Below are positions 37,782 to 44,951 of a DNA stretch of 59,837 bases, one piece after another (the first letter of the stretch is position 1; each line of letters starts with the position of its first letter). The notes below the pieces were generated by a model. It was not told where the DNA came from. It saw nothing but the letters and a program-made list of their open reading frames with translations, and ran no database searches. This DNA is from Candidatus Poribacteria bacterium. GTDB taxonomy: Bacteria; Poribacteria; WGA-4E; WGA-3G. The DNA lies in contig JAJDXV010000085.1 in the NCBI GenBank assembly GCA_022823085.1, positions 1 to 59,837 on the forward strand. The letters are read 5' to 3'. A program made the position numbers and the translations under genes.

Positions 37782-37814
37782 CTCTTCACGCCAACGATTA
37801 CATGGAGGAAGATG

Positions 37815-38219
37815 ATGCGTCATAGGAAACGCGGCAGGAAATTGGGAAGAACCTCAAGCCATCGAAAGGCACTCTTTCGCAACCAAGCTACCGCGCTATT
37901 TGAACATGAACAGATCCGAACAACACTGCCTAAGTGCAAAGAACTTCGACGGGTCGCAGAAAAATTGATTACACTCGCCAAACGGGGGGATCTGCACGCA
38001 CGCCGACAAGCTGCAAAAATGCTCTACGGGTCAGATTTGCATTACAAACCCGGAAGAGGCGAAGAAGCCACCTCGCTTGACAAGCATTTTGTGCTACGTA
38101 AACTCTTTGATGACATCGGACCACGATACCAAGACCGGAACGGTGGCTATACACGTATCATCAGAGGCGAACTCCGAAAAGGAGATGGCACACAGATGGG
38201 TTACATTCAACTCGTTTGA
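37815..38219 (+). CDS. rplQ: 50S ribosomal protein L17
   Basis: 134 residues from the second of two ATGs (37815), which has better spacing from GGAGG and matches [20 protein letters not shown]. Last gene of the supercluster, followed by a strong terminator. Confidence 0.97.
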
Positions 38220-40586: not shown

Positions 40587-41384
40587 GTGGAGGATAATGT
40601 TCGCATAAATCGGCAATTCTTACAAACGGACGACCAAGAGAAGGCATGTGCTCTACTTTTCAACACGTATCACGAGGCAGTCTTTGCCAAAGTTGATGGA
40701 ATGATGCGGAATCACATCGATCCCGCTGTAGATGCCGCGGACATAGTGCAGGAAACCTTTATCAAAGCCATGGAAAAGAGGCACCAAGTCCGAGAACCAG
40801 AAAAGTTGTTAAGGTGGTTGCTAAAGATCGCGACGAACTTAACGCGTAATGAGATTAGAGATGCGGAGCGGCGAACGGGGGACACATTCCTTGAATCGCT
40901 TGAAAGCCTTTCTATCAACGAAAGAAACGCACACTACGCGACCTCTATCTCGGAAACCGATGCTGAACAAGCTGAAGCAAATCGGTATCTGGCGAGGCAA
41001 CTCCTCTGTCTCCTCCAAGGTAAGAACCGAAAAGTTTTAGAACTTAAACTCGCGGGGGCTGAGATTAAAGAGATAGCAGAAACCGTAGGCCCAAACGCTG
41101 TAGCAGTTCAGAAAAGATGGGAACGAATTCTTGAGTGGTTGATACCCATCGGTCTCAATTTAGAAGAATTGATGGACTGTCTCCCAGAGGAGAACGACAG
41201 AAAAATCATGGAGCGGTACTTGGATGGACAACCTCTATCAGAAATTGTGAAAGCAATGAAAACAATTGGCATCTCTCGTTCTGACGTTAAGAAGCGCGTG
41301 AAACGTGTGATAGCACAATGGAAGGAAGCCGCGAAGGATAACCCAACGGATCCCGTTTCCGAAATGGTGAATAACGAGAGATAA
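40587..41384 (+). CDS. ECF-type RNA polymerase sigma factor
   Basis: 265 residues. Region 2 at about 20-90 (ALLFNTYHEAVFAKVDGMM...AADIVQETFIKAMEKRHQV) and a region 4-like HTH at about 150-185 (GKNRKVLELKLAGAEIKEIAETVGPNAVAVQKRW), followed by an unusual second HTH-like part (LPEENDRKIMERYLDGQPLSEIVKAMKTIGISRSDVKKRV). The start is taken as GTG 40587; AGGAGG is 15 bases upstream, and an 8-codon ORF (40574-40597) overlaps the start, so coupling is possible. No anti-sigma gene is adjacent. It may control the exported-protein cluster that follows. Confidence 0.8.
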   Translation: MEDNVRINRQFLQTDDQEKACALLFNTYHEAVFAKVDGMMRNHIDPAVDAADIVQETFIKAMEKRHQVREPEKLLRWLLKIATNLTRNEIRDAERRTGDTFLESLESLSINERNAHYATSISETDAEQAEANRYLARQLLCLLQGKNRKVLELKLAGAEIKEIAETVGPNAVAVQKRWERILEWLIPIGLNLEELMDCLPEENDRKIMERYLDGQPLSEIVKAMKTIGISRSDVKKRVKRVIAQWKEAAKDNPTDPVSEMVNNER

Positions 41385-41524: not shown

Positions 41525-41553
41525 TTCACACATTTTTGTGAATTGGGTATAAT
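41525..41553 (+). promoter_or_regulatory. Promoter with overlapping operator for the exported-protein cluster
   Basis: TTCACA (41525-41530), 17 bases, TATAAT (41548-41553). The -35 hexamer is one arm of a palindrome TTCACA-6-TGTGAA (41525-41542), so a repressor or CRP-like protein bound here would control the cluster. Confidence 0.65.
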
Positions 41554-41691: not shown

Positions 41692-42036
41692 TTGAAAGGA
41701 AACCAACGCCTTTTGATTTTTCTCTTGTGTGGACTGATAGGTGTGTCGGTGTTTCTCGCATACCGTGCGCGTGCGGAAACTTATACCTGTCCTTCACCGC
41801 GTGCGTTCCCGTGTGTCCCCGAAGTCTTACCGCCCGATTCTGTCAGACCCGATTGTGAAGTCGAGCGTCCGTCGCTGCGTCGGTGTGAGCATCGGTGGCG
41901 GAAGCCGCTCATCGCAGACGCTGTGAGATGTCCGCAAAGTTTGTGTTTTTCCGATGTCCAGCATGATAAACTTGATAAACTTCAGAGGGTCGCGAGGCTG
42001 TCAACTTTGGACATCCTGCGTGTGATCGGTCGATAA
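41692..42036 (+). CDS. Exported Cys-containing protein of unknown function
   Basis: 114 residues from TTG 41692 (AAGGAG 6 bases before). Signal peptide about 1-28 (LLIFLLCGLIGVSVFLAYRARA). The mature part has six Cys: YTCPSPRAFPCVPE, RPDCEVERPSLRRCEHRW, VRCPQSLCFSD, spaced as pairs, suggesting disulphides or metal binding. It lies 13 bases ahead of the selenocysteine-type HMA lipoprotein, so metal or redox work in the envelope is plausible. No family recognised. Confidence 0.65.
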   Translation: MKGNQRLLIFLLCGLIGVSVFLAYRARAETYTCPSPRAFPCVPEVLPPDSVRPDCEVERPSLRRCEHRWRKPLIADAVRCPQSLCFSDVQHDKLDKLQRVARLSTLDILRVIGR

Positions 42037-42049
42037 TGGAGGTGTTTCT

Positions 42050-42334
42050 ATGTCTGTGGTCCGTTTCTCGTCTGTTTTGTTGTTGCTCAGTGTTGTCATG
42101 TTATTCATCGGTTGCGCGCCCCCGACAGAGGAGATCAAATTAGCGGTTTCGGGGTTGGACTGAGGGGGCTGTGCGGCAAAAGTGCGGTCTGCACTTCAAG
42201 AGATAGAGGGTGATTTAGAAATCGTCTCGGTCTCGATCCCGGATCAAACCGTCGTTGTGAAAAGTAAAGTGAAGCGTTCCGCCCTCATAGGAGCGTTAGC
42301 GCGTGCGGGTTTCCCCGCAAAAGTGATGAAATAA
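42050..42334 (+). CDS. HMA-domain lipoprotein with in-frame UGA: probable selenoprotein (UxxC)
   Basis: 94 codons from ATG 42050 (GGAGG 8 bases upstream) to TAA 42332, with one in-frame TGA at 42161-42163 (residue 38). Residues 1-22 are a lipoprotein signal (lipobox FIGC, Cys22). The rest, IKLAVSGLD-U-GGCAAKVRSALQEIEGD...VVVKSKVKRSALIGALARAGFPAKV, is a complete heavy-metal-associated (HMA, MerP-like) fold, in which the normal GMxCxxC reads GLD-U-GGC. So Sec replaces exactly the first metal-binding Cys. The fold is intact on both sides of the TGA and in one frame. A SECIS-like hairpin follows at the right distance (42180-42196). A Cys-to-stop mutation or sequencing error is the alternative. 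It would bind soft metals (Cu, Hg, Cd) or act in redox at the outer face of the membrane. The selA/B/C/D genes must lie outside this window. Confidence 0.83.
42180..42196 (+). promoter_or_regulatory. SECIS-like hairpin
   Basis: AAGTGC (42180-42185), loop GGTCT, GCACTT (42191-42196). The loop starts 22 bases after the UGA, within the window (roughly 16-37) required of bacterial SECIS elements. The loop GGUCU closed by G-C matches, from memory, the SelB-binding tip of E. coli fdhF (GCAGGUCUGC). The bulged U of fdhF is not evident. Confidence 0.78.
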
Positions 42335-42381: not shown

Positions 42382-43194
42382 ATGTTAAAAGACCTTTTCC
42401 GAAACCGCCTGTTTATAGGTGCGTTAGCGTTCTTTTTGCTGATGGTTGTTGGTGGGACGTTGTATATATGGCACGTTGAACGCCAAGGTTCGGAATATGC
42501 TGGCGAGACGCAAGACCGCGTTCATCCGTTGCCAAAGAACGCGCACCCGACAACAGCCGTTGCTGATGGGGGGGATTCGGCAGATGGCGATGTTCACACC
42601 CCGATTCACACAATCGTCTCTGTGGAGAAGCCATCACGTTTCGACCCCGTTGCAGAGAAGATGGGGCTGATGTCAGCTGAGGAAATAGATGCACAAGAAA
42701 AAGCGAAACTCGCTTTTTATGCGTCTCTTGGACTCGAACCGCCGCCGCCCGGCTATCGTTATGCGAGAATTGGAGACGGTCCCCCGAAACTCGTAAAAGA
42801 CAAGGACCCCATCATCAATGTTGTCTGGGGTGAAGGATACGGCAACTATCACCAACTCACCGACATAGAATTGGTCAGATACAGTTGTTTGATAGGAATA
42901 GATGATCCGTCTGTTATCAGACGCTACGGACTTTCACAGGAAGAAGTTGAGTTGGGTTTGGACTGGAAACAGGAACTCTACGAAAAGACGAAGGGTCCGA
43001 GACCGACAATTACTGCGCACTTGAGTTATCCATCAAGTAACCCGATGACCGATGAAGAAAAAGCGGCGGTGTACCAGCGGATGCGTGACCGTGAACACGA
43101 GTTAGTTCCGCGTCCACCAGAATCATTCCGTGTCGATTATGATGTTTTTGACACAATCATCGCAGAGATCCGCGAAACATTAGGAGATCATTAG
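42382..43194 (+). CDS. Membrane-anchored protein of unknown function
   Basis: 270 residues from ATG 42382 (TAGGAG upstream). One N-terminal helix at about 10-30 (LFIGALAFFLLMVVGGTLYIW) with no cleavage site; the remainder is probably periplasmic, with PPPPGYRYARIGDGPPKL and a helical C-terminal half (MTDEEKAAVYQRMRDREHEL). Not recognised. Its stop directly abuts the next start, so it belongs to the operon. Confidence 0.7.
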   Translation: MLKDLFRNRLFIGALAFFLLMVVGGTLYIWHVERQGSEYAGETQDRVHPLPKNAHPTTAVADGGDSADGDVHTPIHTIVSVEKPSRFDPVAEKMGLMSAEEIDAQEKAKLAFYASLGLEPPPPGYRYARIGDGPPKLVKDKDPIINVVWGEGYGNYHQLTDIELVRYSCLIGIDDPSVIRRYGLSQEEVELGLDWKQELYEKTKGPRPTITAHLSYPSSNPMTDEEKAAVYQRMRDREHELVPRPPESFRVDYDVFDTIIAEIRETLGDH

Positions 43195-44214
43195 ATGAAA
43201 TATAGAAGTTTTATGTTTTTGTTCGTATTATTTTTCGTTAGTTTTGCCACCATCGCATCAGCAGATATACGGATGACGGGTCCCACGGTCTCCGCGTCAG
43301 CGACTGCTGATCCCGGGAGGGCAAGTGTCCTTAAGACCTATGACCAACAAGGCAATTGGCTGAGTACACAAAAAGCAAGTTATGATCTGGCTGTAGAAGC
43401 CGAAGTTGAGGCGTATGGAAAAGGTTGGGTCGGTGTCCGAGCGGAAGGTTCGCTGGACACGGGACTGCAGCTCAATTCGAGTGTGTCCGTTGAAAAGGTG
43501 AGTTTCTTATTCGTTTTTCCAGAGGCAGAAACGACGACAGCACTCGCCCGCGGGGATTTTGTTACAGATGGCACGGGGAATCGGACGCTCACGGGTAGCG
43601 GCATAGCTGCTGTTTCTGCGGGTGGCAATTCCCTCTCGTTTTCTGGTGGCAGTTGGGGTGTTGGTGTTGGTGAAGGACGCATCAACTTAGGTGGCTCCAC
43701 GATAACGGATACGGCATCTTTTACCATAGAACTTGTGCGAGAAACACAAGGTTCAGGCAGCGGTTCGGGTGGCGGTAGTTCAGGTAGTGGTTCGGGTAGC
43801 GGTAGTCAGGGGAGTGGTCCTGGCTGTTCTCAGAGCACTGTCGGTGACTATTGTACGGACGATGGTGCATGTTCGACGCGTTCGACATCCGGTGTTCCGG
43901 GTGAATGCGGTCAGAATTGGTGTTGCTGTGCGGGTTCGAGTGCGCCGGTCTATAGCGGCAGTGGTTCTGGTAGCGGTTCTGGCTCCGGTAGCGGTTCAAG
44001 TAGCGGCTCGAGTTGTCATAGCTTTGGTAGTGATAACACTTGTACGAGCGATGGCTCGTGTTCTGATAGTTCAGCCTGCGGAAATAACAGCTGTGGCTGT
44101 GCCAGCAGTAGCAGCGACTCGTATTGTTCGAGCGATAGTAATGGCAATTGTACGGGGGGTGGCTCGTGTGCTGATAGTACCGCCTGCGGAAATAGCAGCT
44201 GTAGCTGTTCGTAA
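43195..44214 (+). CDS. Exported protein with Gly-Ser linkers and three Cys-rich modules
   Basis: 339 residues. Signal peptide about 1-23 (FLFVLFFVSFATIASA). Residues about 24-180 are a beta-rich domain (VSASATADPGRASVL, VEAEVEAYGKGWVGVRAEG). Then three Cys-rich modules of similar plan, C-x6-(Y)C-x5-C...C-x-C, separated by (GS)n linkers of up to about 20 residues: GCSQSTVGDYCTDDGACS, SCHSFGSDNTCTSDGSCS and YCSSDSNGNCTGGGSC. The last two end CGNNSCGC and CGNSSCSCS. Such modules could bind metal or form disulphides on a surface fibre. The linkers are encoded by repeating GGT AGC GGT TCT codons. Follows the HMA selenoprotein by one gene. Confidence 0.75.
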   Translation: MKYRSFMFLFVLFFVSFATIASADIRMTGPTVSASATADPGRASVLKTYDQQGNWLSTQKASYDLAVEAEVEAYGKGWVGVRAEGSLDTGLQLNSSVSVEKVSFLFVFPEAETTTALARGDFVTDGTGNRTLTGSGIAAVSAGGNSLSFSGGSWGVGVGEGRINLGGSTITDTASFTIELVRETQGSGSGSGGGSSGSGSGSGSQGSGPGCSQSTVGDYCTDDGACSTRSTSGVPGECGQNWCCCAGSSAPVYSGSGSGSGSGSGSGSSSGSSCHSFGSDNTCTSDGSCSDSSACGNNSCGCASSSSDSYCSSDSNGNCTGGGSCADSTACGNSSCSCS

Positions 44215-44261
44215 TGATAGTCTTTCGTATGCCCAATGCCATGCTTAAGGAGTCGATTCTC

Positions 44262-44951
44262 ATGTTTAAGAAACGCGCCGTTTATCTTCTGATATTTGGC
44301 GCGTTTATATTCTATCTTGTTTTATTTTTCTTTGGTCGTTCGTCGTCAGAAGCGCGCCGAACGGTCAAGGTTGTGCCTGTCTCGTCAGTGGGTCGTGGTG
44401 TAGACATCCCGCCGATAGATTTTGATTCAGCGTCTTACTACCGTCCGATTCTTGAATACAATCTTTTTCGTCCGCTGGGTTGGAGTCCGCCAGTTCGAGT
44501 AGAGCCGTATCGCTTACTCGGTACCATTCTGCCCAAAGACGACAGCACGCCCTCGAAAGCCATTTTCCAAACGACCGCGGGAAAGAAAACCTATATCGTG
44601 AGCATCGGTGAGACACTGGATGCCTCAACAGAAGTTGTGGATATATCGGGGAAATCCGTGGTGCTATCGACAGAAGGTCGCGAGCGGACACTGGAGCTGA
44701 ACACCGGTATCTGGTTGAATCCGTCGGTTCGTTCATCAGTTATCAGCCCTCGTCGTTCCACGCCTCGGCGTGTCGTCGCCTCACCTGCGAGAAGTTCAGC
44801 GTCGCCGCGCAGAGAACCGCCGCGCGTCCGCGATAAGTTGTCGGCGTGGGAGACGGTTGAAGGCGAGGTGATCCGTATTGGTGATGCTCGCTTGAAGAAT
44901 CCAGCGAAATGGGGTTTACGTCGTCGTTTCCCTGACAACAAGTTTGATTAG
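44262..44951 (+). CDS. GspC/PulC-like protein (type II secretion or pilus inner-membrane link)
   Basis: 229 residues from ATG 44262 (AAGGAG 9 bases upstream); earlier ATGs in the frame lack a site. Short N-terminus, one membrane helix at about 8-25 (LLIFGAFIFYLVLFFFG), then a segment like the homology region of GspC: YYRPILEYNLFRPLGW, YRLLGTILPKDDSTPSKAIFQ, GKKTYIVSIGETLDASTEVVDISGKSVVLSTEGRERTLEL. In type II secretion, GspC links the inner membrane platform to the GspD secretin. No other gsp gene is nearby, so its partner is elsewhere or it serves this cluster. Confidence 0.65.
   Translation: MFKKRAVYLLIFGAFIFYLVLFFFGRSSSEARRTVKVVPVSSVGRGVDIPPIDFDSASYYRPILEYNLFRPLGWSPPVRVEPYRLLGTILPKDDSTPSKAIFQTTAGKKTYIVSIGETLDASTEVVDISGKSVVLSTEGRERTLELNTGIWLNPSVRSSVISPRRSTPRRVVASPARSSASPRREPPRVRDKLSAWETVEGEVIRIGDARLKNPAKWGLRRRFPDNKFD

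What the first reader, a model, noticed from the sequence alone, without database searches (positions are those of the whole stretch)
42050..42334. Uncalled selenoprotein: HMA lipoprotein with UxxC and an fdhF-like SECIS
Seen: a 94-codon frame with SD, lipobox and one in-frame TGA at codon 38, placed exactly where the first Cys of the HMA GMxCxxC motif belongs (GLD-U-GGC). The HMA fold continues in frame after the TGA to a normal stop. A perfect 6-bp hairpin with loop GGUCU begins 16 bases after the UGA (loop at 22). Known: bacterial SECIS hairpins lie just after the UGA with G/GU at the tip; the E. coli fdhF tip is GGUCU closed by GC. Inference: selenocysteine is inserted. An envelope-anchored HMA domain with Sec would bind soft metals very tightly or be a redox switch. 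Standard gene callers would miss or split it.
Basis: partly seen in the sequence, partly recalled or inferred. Interest (0 to 1): 0.93.

Follow-up and report, generated by a model that had tools for sequence, protein, structure and literature searches.

The report
Selenocysteine-based metal-binding envelope lipoprotein family
In an uncultured Poribacteria genome, a small gene interrupted by a UGA codon is predicted to insert selenocysteine there, giving a likely metal-binding lipoprotein, and the same motif, UGA and RNA-hairpin design recurs in 69 of 84 genomes of the phylum, in a few of them three or four times within one gene.

Summary
The finding holds. Window 42050-42334 is a 94-codon lipoprotein frame with one in-frame TGA (codon 38) at the first cysteine of an HMA GMxCxxC motif. 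The genome carries tRNA-Sec (anticodon TCA), selA, selB and selD. In protein-guided loci from relatives, a filter allowing any residue at the position found 74 TGA, 6 Cys and 1 TAA; 74 of 74 TGA domains carry GTGC-N5-GCAC 18 bases on, against 1 of 6 Cys ones. The Val and Ala codons forming that stem are GTG and GCA in 68 of 68 distinct sequences, while a Val five codons before the TGA uses all four codons about equally. Coding constraint continues after the TGA (median pN/pS 0.28). The design is in 69 of 84 genomes of the phylum; the reversed pattern is in none. Databases truncate the sister type: 107 of 120 listed homologues end just before the TGA. The family also has paired lipoproteins, cytochrome/WD40/HMA fusions and tandem arrays with up to four TGAs. 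Sec insertion is near certain by inference, unproven by chemistry. Soft-metal capture is the likeliest role; selenol redox chemistry is the main rival. HMA-type selenoproteins were known; this is a new variant.

The parts
41525..41553 (+). promoter-like site TTCACA-17-TATAAT upstream of the gene group
   Evidence: 11 of 12 consensus match; 3 sites found against 4.8 expected in shuffles, so weak
41692..42036 (+). 114-aa frame just upstream with a hydrophobic N-terminus, conserved partner of unknown role
   Evidence: tblastn matches in 12 other loci of the window-type gene; no Pfam hit, no PHROGs hit
42038..42042 (+). Shine-Dalgarno GGAGG, 7 bases before the ATG
   Evidence: sequence
42050..42334 (+). 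Sec-containing HMA lipoprotein gene (94 codons plus TAA)
42050..42115 (+). signal peptide with lipobox FIGC, lipidated Cys22 predicted
   Evidence: sequence; the aligned Cys22 is invariant in the 6 sequences of A3
42140..42313 (+). HMA domain
   Evidence: PF00403 over cut-off; AlphaFold model with order E-H-E-E-H-E, best PDB match MerP 1osd
42161..42163 (+). in-frame TGA, predicted selenocysteine 38, first position of UxxC
42180..42196 (+). SECIS-like hairpin AAGUGC-GGUCU-GCACUU
   Evidence: GTGC/GCAC in 74 of 74 TGA domains under an any-residue filter (70 of 70 and 73 of 73 under two other filters); Cys homologues 1 of 6 and 1 of 10 in a wider set
42382..43194 (+). membrane-anchored partner protein (270 aa)
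   Evidence: tblastn matches by the N-terminus in 5 other loci; frames with a similar N-terminal anchor in further loci by reading
43195..44214 (+). secreted Cys-rich partner (339 aa, 19 Cys)
   Evidence: Cys-rich frame (19-35 Cys) downstream in 9 of 15 window-type loci with at least 1.9 kb of downstream sequence
44214..44951 (+). type II secretion protein C-like partner (245 aa)
   Evidence: weak Pfam T2SSC E 0.0019, below cut-off; tblastn matches in 6 other loci

Best explanation
The gene at 42050-42334 is predicted to encode a selenoprotein: its in-frame UGA would be read as selenocysteine by the genome's own tRNA-Sec and SelB with the help of a hairpin just downstream, giving a likely exported lipoprotein whose UxxC-carrying HMA domain likely captures soft metal ions such as Hg(II), Cu(I), Ag(I) or Cd(II) in the cell envelope. 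Shown by sequence: the UGA position, the HMA domain on both sides of it, the conserved hairpin, purifying selection after the UGA, the complete Sec machinery, and the recurrence of the design in most Poribacteria genomes searched. Inferred: actual Sec insertion, export and lipidation, metal binding. Further inference: the selenolate, which stays deprotonated at neutral pH and binds soft metals more tightly than a thiolate (general chemistry, recalled), strengthens capture outside the cytoplasm, and the bound ion is passed to, or held together with, the Cys-rich secreted protein encoded in the same gene group (43195-44214). I put Sec insertion at about 0.95 and the soft-metal role alone at about 0.55; the figure below is for the whole statement with the role marked as likely.
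For: Sec machinery in the same genome; SelD itself carries an in-frame TGA at KCAG-U-ASK. Any-residue filter on the protein-found loci: 74 TGA, 6 Cys, 1 TAA and no other residue; hairpin GTGC-N5-GCAC at the fixed 18-base offset in 74 of 74 TGA domains and 1 of 6 Cys domains; a wider set of Cys homologues gives 1 of 10. Codon control: Val+7 is GTG in 68 of 68 and Ala+10 is GCA in 68 of 68, although eleven window genes use GTG for 21% of Val and GCA for 28% of Ala, and Val-5 in the same sequences is GTT 15, GTC 18, GTA 15, GTG 17. pN/pS after the TGA: median 0.28, maximum 0.45 over 91 pairs of 14 sequences, each with exactly 56 codons to the stop. Distribution: 69 of 84 genomes, tRNA-Sec in 73 of 84. 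Own genome: 7 HMA hits over cut-off, 5 with TGA; four of these have a lipobox and the fifth a signal-like N-terminus, whereas the two Cys ones are an 89-aa frame without a visible signal peptide and a P-type ATPase. Fold: MerP first, then ZntA, GolB and human ATOX1. Partner with 19-35 Cys in 9 of 15 loci.
Against: No protein, read or selenium data. One relative (G020:C20) has TAA at the Sec codon with the hairpin kept, and one copy in G002 carries extra TGAs, so some copies look dead. Single-sequence folding includes the stem in only 41 of 68 sequences and not in the window; the four inner pairs never vary and so give no covariation, and the outermost pair fails in 40 of 68. No MerA over cut-off in the genome and no metal transport or resistance gene among the ten neighbours scanned of the sister pair and an array, so the metal role rests mainly on the fold. 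The Cys-rich partner is absent in 5 of 15 window-type loci, among them the second copy in the own genome, and weak (11 Cys) in one.
Confidence: 0.82

Rival explanations
1. Sec is inserted, but the protein works as a selenol-thiol redox protein: the UxxC pair cycles through a selenenylsulfide and reduces peroxides or shuffles disulfides, perhaps those of the Cys-rich secreted partner.
For: UxxC is a common redox arrangement (recalled); the partner gene encodes 19-35 Cys in 9 of 15 loci; a sister family fuses the domain to a planctomycete-type cytochrome c domain (PSCyt1) and WD40 repeats, both over Pfam cut-off.
Against: The fold is HMA/MerP, not thioredoxin-like; the residues around the motif are those of the metal-binding HMA profile.
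Confidence: 0.3
2. The UGA is read as tryptophan or cysteine by a reassigned or suppressor tRNA, not as Sec.
For: 8 of 120 listed database homologues of the sister type were called with Trp at the position.
Against: The window gene 37812-38219 and the relative L049 end in TGA; full Sec machinery; the hairpin goes with TGA and is missing in 9 of 10 Cys homologues; with any residue allowed, the only sense residue found at the position is Cys, 6 of 6.
Confidence: 0.02
3. The UGA is a real stop, and the gene is a decaying pseudogene or makes only a 37-aa lipopeptide.
For: One relative has TAA there; three partial copies exist (G000:C60, G019:C92, G011:C63).
Against: pN/pS 0.28 after the TGA and identical length in 14 of 14; 74 of 81 domains found with any residue allowed have TGA, only one has another stop; the stem codons are fixed.
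Confidence: 0.02
4. The Sec-rich HMA proteins, above all the arrays, mainly store or carry selenium, as selenoprotein P does in animals (recalled).
For: Two to four TGA domains per frame in five arrays; up to seven pattern hits in one genome.
Against: Each TGA sits in an intact HMA site rather than in a loose Sec-rich tail, and the last repeat has Cys in the four arrays read to their end.
Confidence: 0.05

Closest known systems
MerP, periplasmic mercury-binding protein (TIGR02052; PDB 1osd, 1afi)
   Same: HMA fold, GMxCxxC-type site; best structural match of the model is 1osd, sequence match to 1afi
   Different: Sec replaces the first Cys; lipoprotein; TIGR02052 score 30.6 against cut-off 92.55; no MerA over cut-off in the genome
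MerP selenoprotein entries in the Global Ocean Sampling survey (PMC2398784; passages read)
   Same: A MerP family is listed there as a selenoprotein (2 sequences, no motif given)
   Different: No organism, architecture, lipoprotein, fusion or multi-Sec array is given for it in the passages I read
NF041115 UxxU metal-binding (seleno)protein (NCBIfam; PMC13188914 table, passages read)
   Same: HMA-like domain with Sec at the metal site; a three-repeat piece of an array, Cys for Sec, scores 119.2 against the cut-off of 95, adding up its repeats
   Different: UxxU with two Sec; the window protein scores 35.9 and the sister lipoprotein 50.6 against 95, and both have UxxC
NF045683 MerT/CopZ fusion-like heavy metal transport selenoprotein and the E1-E2 cation ATPase with UxxC
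   Same: Sec in heavy-metal transport proteins
   Different: Named as transporters or fusions; score 21.9 against 375
CopZ / ATX1 copper chaperones (NF047957, PF00403)
   Same: Same domain family; 43.5 bits to NF047957
   Different: Cytosolic and Cys-based (recalled); below the cut-off of 85; the array piece passes it at 136.5 by adding three repeats

Membership tests
Bacterial selenoprotein | In-frame UGA with homology on both sides | tested here: met
Bacterial selenoprotein | tRNA-Sec, SelA, SelB, SelD in the genome | tested here: met
Bacterial selenoprotein | Conserved SECIS hairpin just after the UGA | tested here: met
   74 of 74; Cys homologues 1 of 6 and 1 of 10; covariation itself uninformative
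Bacterial selenoprotein | Sec/Cys pairs among homologues | tested here: met
   Fusion type: UxxC in L067-L072, CxxC in L073-L075; arrays mix both
Bacterial selenoprotein | Selenium present in the protein | not testable with these tools
   Needs 75Se labelling or mass spectrometry
HMA domain (PF00403) | Profile match over the curated cut-off and the six-element fold | tested here: met
   43.9 bits against 24.8 with C for U; model with block pLDDT 86-92 from residue 31 on
HMA domain (PF00403) | Binds a soft metal ion | not testable with these tools
   No assay
MerP (TIGR02052) | Score over curated cut-off | tested here: not met
   30.6 against 92.55; the array piece reaches 98.8 by adding three repeats
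MerP (TIGR02052) | Mercury operon partner MerA in the genome | tested here: not met
   Best MerA hit 385 bits, under the cut-off of 454; MerT not searched; genome 92% complete
NF041115 UxxU metal-binding (seleno)protein | UxxU motif and score over cut-off | tested here: not met
   UxxC; 35.9 against 95
NF045683 MerT/CopZ selenoprotein | Score over cut-off | tested here: not met
   21.9 against 375
Bacterial lipoprotein | Signal peptide with lipobox | tested here: met
   By sequence only: FIGC at Cys22. A crude text filter puts 103 of 162 distinct family frames under lipobox, 42 under fusion, 4 under multi-domain and 13 under other, some of these cut by contig ends; no signal-peptide program was available

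The most novel reading that the evidence does not exclude
Poribacteria run a selenium-based metal (or redox) buffer in their cell envelope: in the window's genome the exported HMA domains have gone over to selenocysteine while the cytosolic ones keep cysteine, and the design pervades the phylum. It includes bacterial tandem multi-Sec proteins in which each UxxC repeat carries its own UGA and its own hairpin, three to four selenocysteines per chain. Database gene callers cut the family off at the UGA.
Probability: 0.6. Interest if true: 0.87.

Novelty: new variant of a known kind. Interest (0 to 1): 0.78.

Why it matters
It points to a large set of selenoproteins hidden by a stop-codon reading rule: 107 of 120 listed database relatives of one branch are truncated just before the UGA. 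It suggests that selenium is used at scale for envelope metal or redox chemistry in Poribacteria, bacteria found largely in sponges (recalled). The arrays pose a testable translation problem: how a bacterial ribosome passes three or four UGA-Sec events in one message. The Sec/Cys and exported/cytosolic pairs within one genome give a natural experiment on what selenium buys a metal site. Annotation pipelines could adopt a model for the family directly.

Tried and rejected
Single-sequence RNA folding of the window was not convincing and was replaced by comparison. Covariation counting gave little, because the inner pairs never vary. A protein search with the window protein found nothing (24 candidates, none at E 0.001); the sister type found 126, of which 120 were listed. 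My first text filter allowed only TGA, Cys or a stop at the position (70, 6 and 1 rows), so I repeated it with any residue allowed: 74 TGA, 6 Cys, 1 TAA, nothing else; some family members may escape these text filters. Ten neighbours of the sister lipoprotein pair (8, own contig C4) and of an array region (2, G020:C30) showed no metal transport or resistance genes. MerA: only sub-threshold matches. In the two other phyla sampled the strict pattern is rare: 6 of 297 (four of the six were my seeds) and 1 of 294 (the seed itself). Of 25 non-Poribacteria pattern loci, 6 are chance (L128, L143, L150, L161, L167, L176). Paper searches showed no description of UxxC HMA lipoproteins or multi-Sec HMA arrays. 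Passages only were read of PMC13188914, PMC2398784, PMC12013277, PMC9312934 and PMC9402790; PMC1794560 held none of the terms asked for. Supplementary files were not searchable, and neither of the two Poribacteria/selenocysteine papers listed was opened. Not tried: a covariance-model search, a tree of Sec/Cys switches, a list of all tRNAs.

Full report
Observation. The frame 42050-42334 is exactly as described: GGAGG at 42038-42042, ATG at 42050, lipobox FIGC, TGA at 42161-42163 (codon 38), hairpin AAGTGC-GGTCT-GCACTT at 42180-42196 and TAA at 42332-42334. With Cys in place of the TGA it matches Pfam HMA at 43.9 bits, cut-off 24.8. The AlphaFold model, built with six sequences, has the strand-helix-strand-strand-helix-strand order and block pLDDT of 86-92 from residue 31 on. 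Its best PDB match is MerP 1osd, followed by ZntA, GolB and human ATOX1.

Machinery. The window is contig C167 of a 5.2 Mb, 92% complete genome. It has tRNA-Sec (76.4 bits, anticodon TCA), selB at 360 bits next to it on C89, selA at 525 bits and selD at 360 bits. The selD frame holds one TGA, at KCAG-U-ASK, an internal parallel. TGA is also an ordinary stop here: the gene at 37812-38219 ends in it.

Family. In 60 related genomes, own included, 55 have a match to the protein; most matches on the capped list have exactly one TGA inside. Reading the frames shows four architectures. (A) The window type: about 94 aa, MD-UGGCA..KVRSAL; G002 has seven such copies, one with extra TGAs and one cut short. 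(B) Lipoproteins of about 100-150 aa, usually in pairs, MT-UGACTSKVQDAL, also in the own genome on C4. (C) A protein of about 540 aa with a planctomycete-type cytochrome c domain, WD40 repeats and a C-terminal UxxC HMA, also in the own genome on C133. Pfam finds PSCyt1 (42.6 bits, cut-off 22) and WD40 (106 bits, cut-off 27) in the copy scanned, L070; the own copy starts with a signal-like segment and a CQGCHH motif. (D) Tandem arrays: five distinct ones among the loci fetched, with 4, 3, 3, 3 and 2 UxxC domains. Four end in a CxxC domain; the fifth (L225) runs off the end of the stretch held, so its count is a lower bound. The strict pattern occurs 4, 3, 3, 3 and 2 times in the five array loci, one hairpin per TGA repeat.

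Hairpin. My first text filter gave 70 TGA domains, 70 of 70 with GTGC-N5-GCAC at the same offset. A looser filter added seven whose motif does not begin GM/GL/GA with the expected third residue; they carry it too (73 of 73 in that set). A third filter, with any residue allowed at the position, gave 74 TGA, 6 Cys and 1 TAA: 74 of 74, 1 of 6 and 1 of 1 with the hairpin. A wider set of Cys homologues has it in 1 of 10; the exception is the Cys repeat of the G032 array, while the Cys repeats of three other arrays have lost it. The stem is written in a Val and an Ala codon: GTG in 68 of 68 and GCA in 68 of 68 distinct sequences, against 21% and 28% in eleven window genes. A Val five codons before the TGA in the same sequences uses GTT 15, GTC 18, GTA 15, GTG 17, so this is not general codon conservation. 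Against this, the energy minimum contains the stem in 41 of 68 sequences and not in the window, and the four inner pairs cannot covary because they never vary.

Coding after the TGA. In 14 window-type copies, window included (13 TGA, 1 TAA), the frame runs exactly 56 codons past the position in 14 of 14. pN/pS there has median 0.28 and maximum 0.45 over 91 pairs.

Distribution. The pattern of motif, TGA and hairpin is in 69 of 84 genomes of the phylum and never in the reversed control; tRNA-Sec is over cut-off in 73 of 84. Of the 25, 19 read as HMA genes by eye, without a profile search: records labelled Planctomycetota or groups that I place there from recall (Gemmataceae, Planctomycetaceae, Planctomycetia, Kuenenia, Singulisphaera), Acidobacteria, Latescibacterota, an Akkermansiaceae bacterium and an unnamed bacterium. 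I tested 12 of these 19 genomes: 10 have tRNA-Sec, two Acidobacteria records do not. In samples of two of those phyla the strict pattern is rare: 6 of 297, four of them seeds, and 1 of 294, the seed itself. So heavy use looks like a Poribacteria trait, as far as this one hairpin pattern tells.

Annotation. Among 120 listed database homologues of type B, 107 end just before the TGA, 8 have Trp there, and 5 are array fragments with only the Cys domain; none shows U.

Own-genome contrast. Of seven HMA hits over cut-off, five carry TGA: four with a lipobox, one in the type C frame with a signal-like start. The two Cys ones are an 89-aa frame without a visible signal peptide and a 758-aa frame with an E1-E2 ATPase domain.

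Gene group. The window gene sits 13 bases behind a 114-aa frame with relatives in 12 other loci of the type. It is followed by a membrane-anchored protein, a Cys-rich secreted protein (19 Cys here) and a protein with a weak, sub-threshold resemblance to type II secretion protein C. A Cys-rich frame with 19-35 Cys follows in 9 of 15 window-type loci with at least 1.9 kb downstream; one more has 11 Cys, five have none.

Mechanism. UGA decoding as Sec with a SelB-type hairpin is the reading that fits all of this. For function I commit to soft-metal capture in the envelope, because the fold and motif are those of MerP and copper chaperones and a selenolate is a stronger soft ligand (general chemistry, recalled). 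A selenol redox role, possibly acting on the Cys-rich partner, is the main rival at 0.3; the cytochrome domain of type C leans its way. No MerA over cut-off was found in the genome, and no metal transport or resistance gene among ten neighbours scanned.

Known or new. A 2026 review (PMC13188914, passages read) lists a putative mercuric transport protein, an E1-E2 ATPase with UxxC and a UxxU metal-binding protein among selenoproteins. A 2008 survey (PMC2398784, passages read) lists MerP with two sequences. NCBIfam has UxxU and MerT/CopZ selenoprotein models; the window protein is far below both cut-offs, but a three-repeat array piece, Cys for Sec, passes the UxxU model (119.2 against 95), CopZ (136.5 against 85) and MerP (98.8 against 92.55) by adding up repeats. 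In the searches I saw no report of UxxC HMA lipoproteins in Poribacteria, Sec-HMA fusions of type C, or multi-Sec HMA arrays. Hence: a new variant of a known kind.

Corrected: the upstream frame has relatives in 12 loci, not 13; G002 has seven window-type copies, not ten; Trp was seen in 8 of 8 such entries. Added: the any-residue count, the array scores, the fusion domains.

Noticed in passing
L064 2649-4073 + (G020:C30), L065 2347 + (G006:C77), L066 2065 + (G032:C44), L233/L205 (G063:C2), L225: Tandem HMA frames with 4, 3, 3, 3 and at least 2 in-frame TGAs, one GTGC/GCAC hairpin per TGA repeat; the last repeat is Cys in the four read to their end.
   Followed up: partly
L067-L072; own genome G000:C133:18577-18747: Proteins of about 540 aa joining PSCyt1 cytochrome, WD40 repeats and a C-terminal UxxC HMA (Pfam on L070); Cys versions in L073, L074 and L075.
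   Followed up: partly
G020:C20:25968-26249 (L010, L061): A window-type relative with TAA at the Sec codon, otherwise intact, hairpin kept; likely a recent loss.
   Followed up: no
window 43195-44214 and downstream of other window-type loci: A secreted Cys-rich protein (19-35 Cys) follows the Sec lipoprotein in 9 of 15 loci; no Pfam domain in the window copy.
   Followed up: partly
window 41692-42036: Conserved 114-aa frame with several Cys just upstream; no family match.
   Followed up: partly
G000:C60:31407-31535, G019:C92:52715-52858, G011:C63:2543-2719: Partial window-type copies that lack the N-terminal part; signs of copy turnover.
   Followed up: no
window 40587-41384: ECF-type sigma factor gene upstream of the gene group; a tblastn match in only one other window-type locus (L047, 30% identity).
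   Followed up: no
G000:C43:2060-2983 (L044): selD is itself a TGA-containing selenoprotein gene.
   Followed up: partly
P0002, P0004, P0006, P0017-P0019, P0022, P0052: Database entries that show Trp at this UGA, probably an artefact of gene calling with another code.
   Followed up: partly
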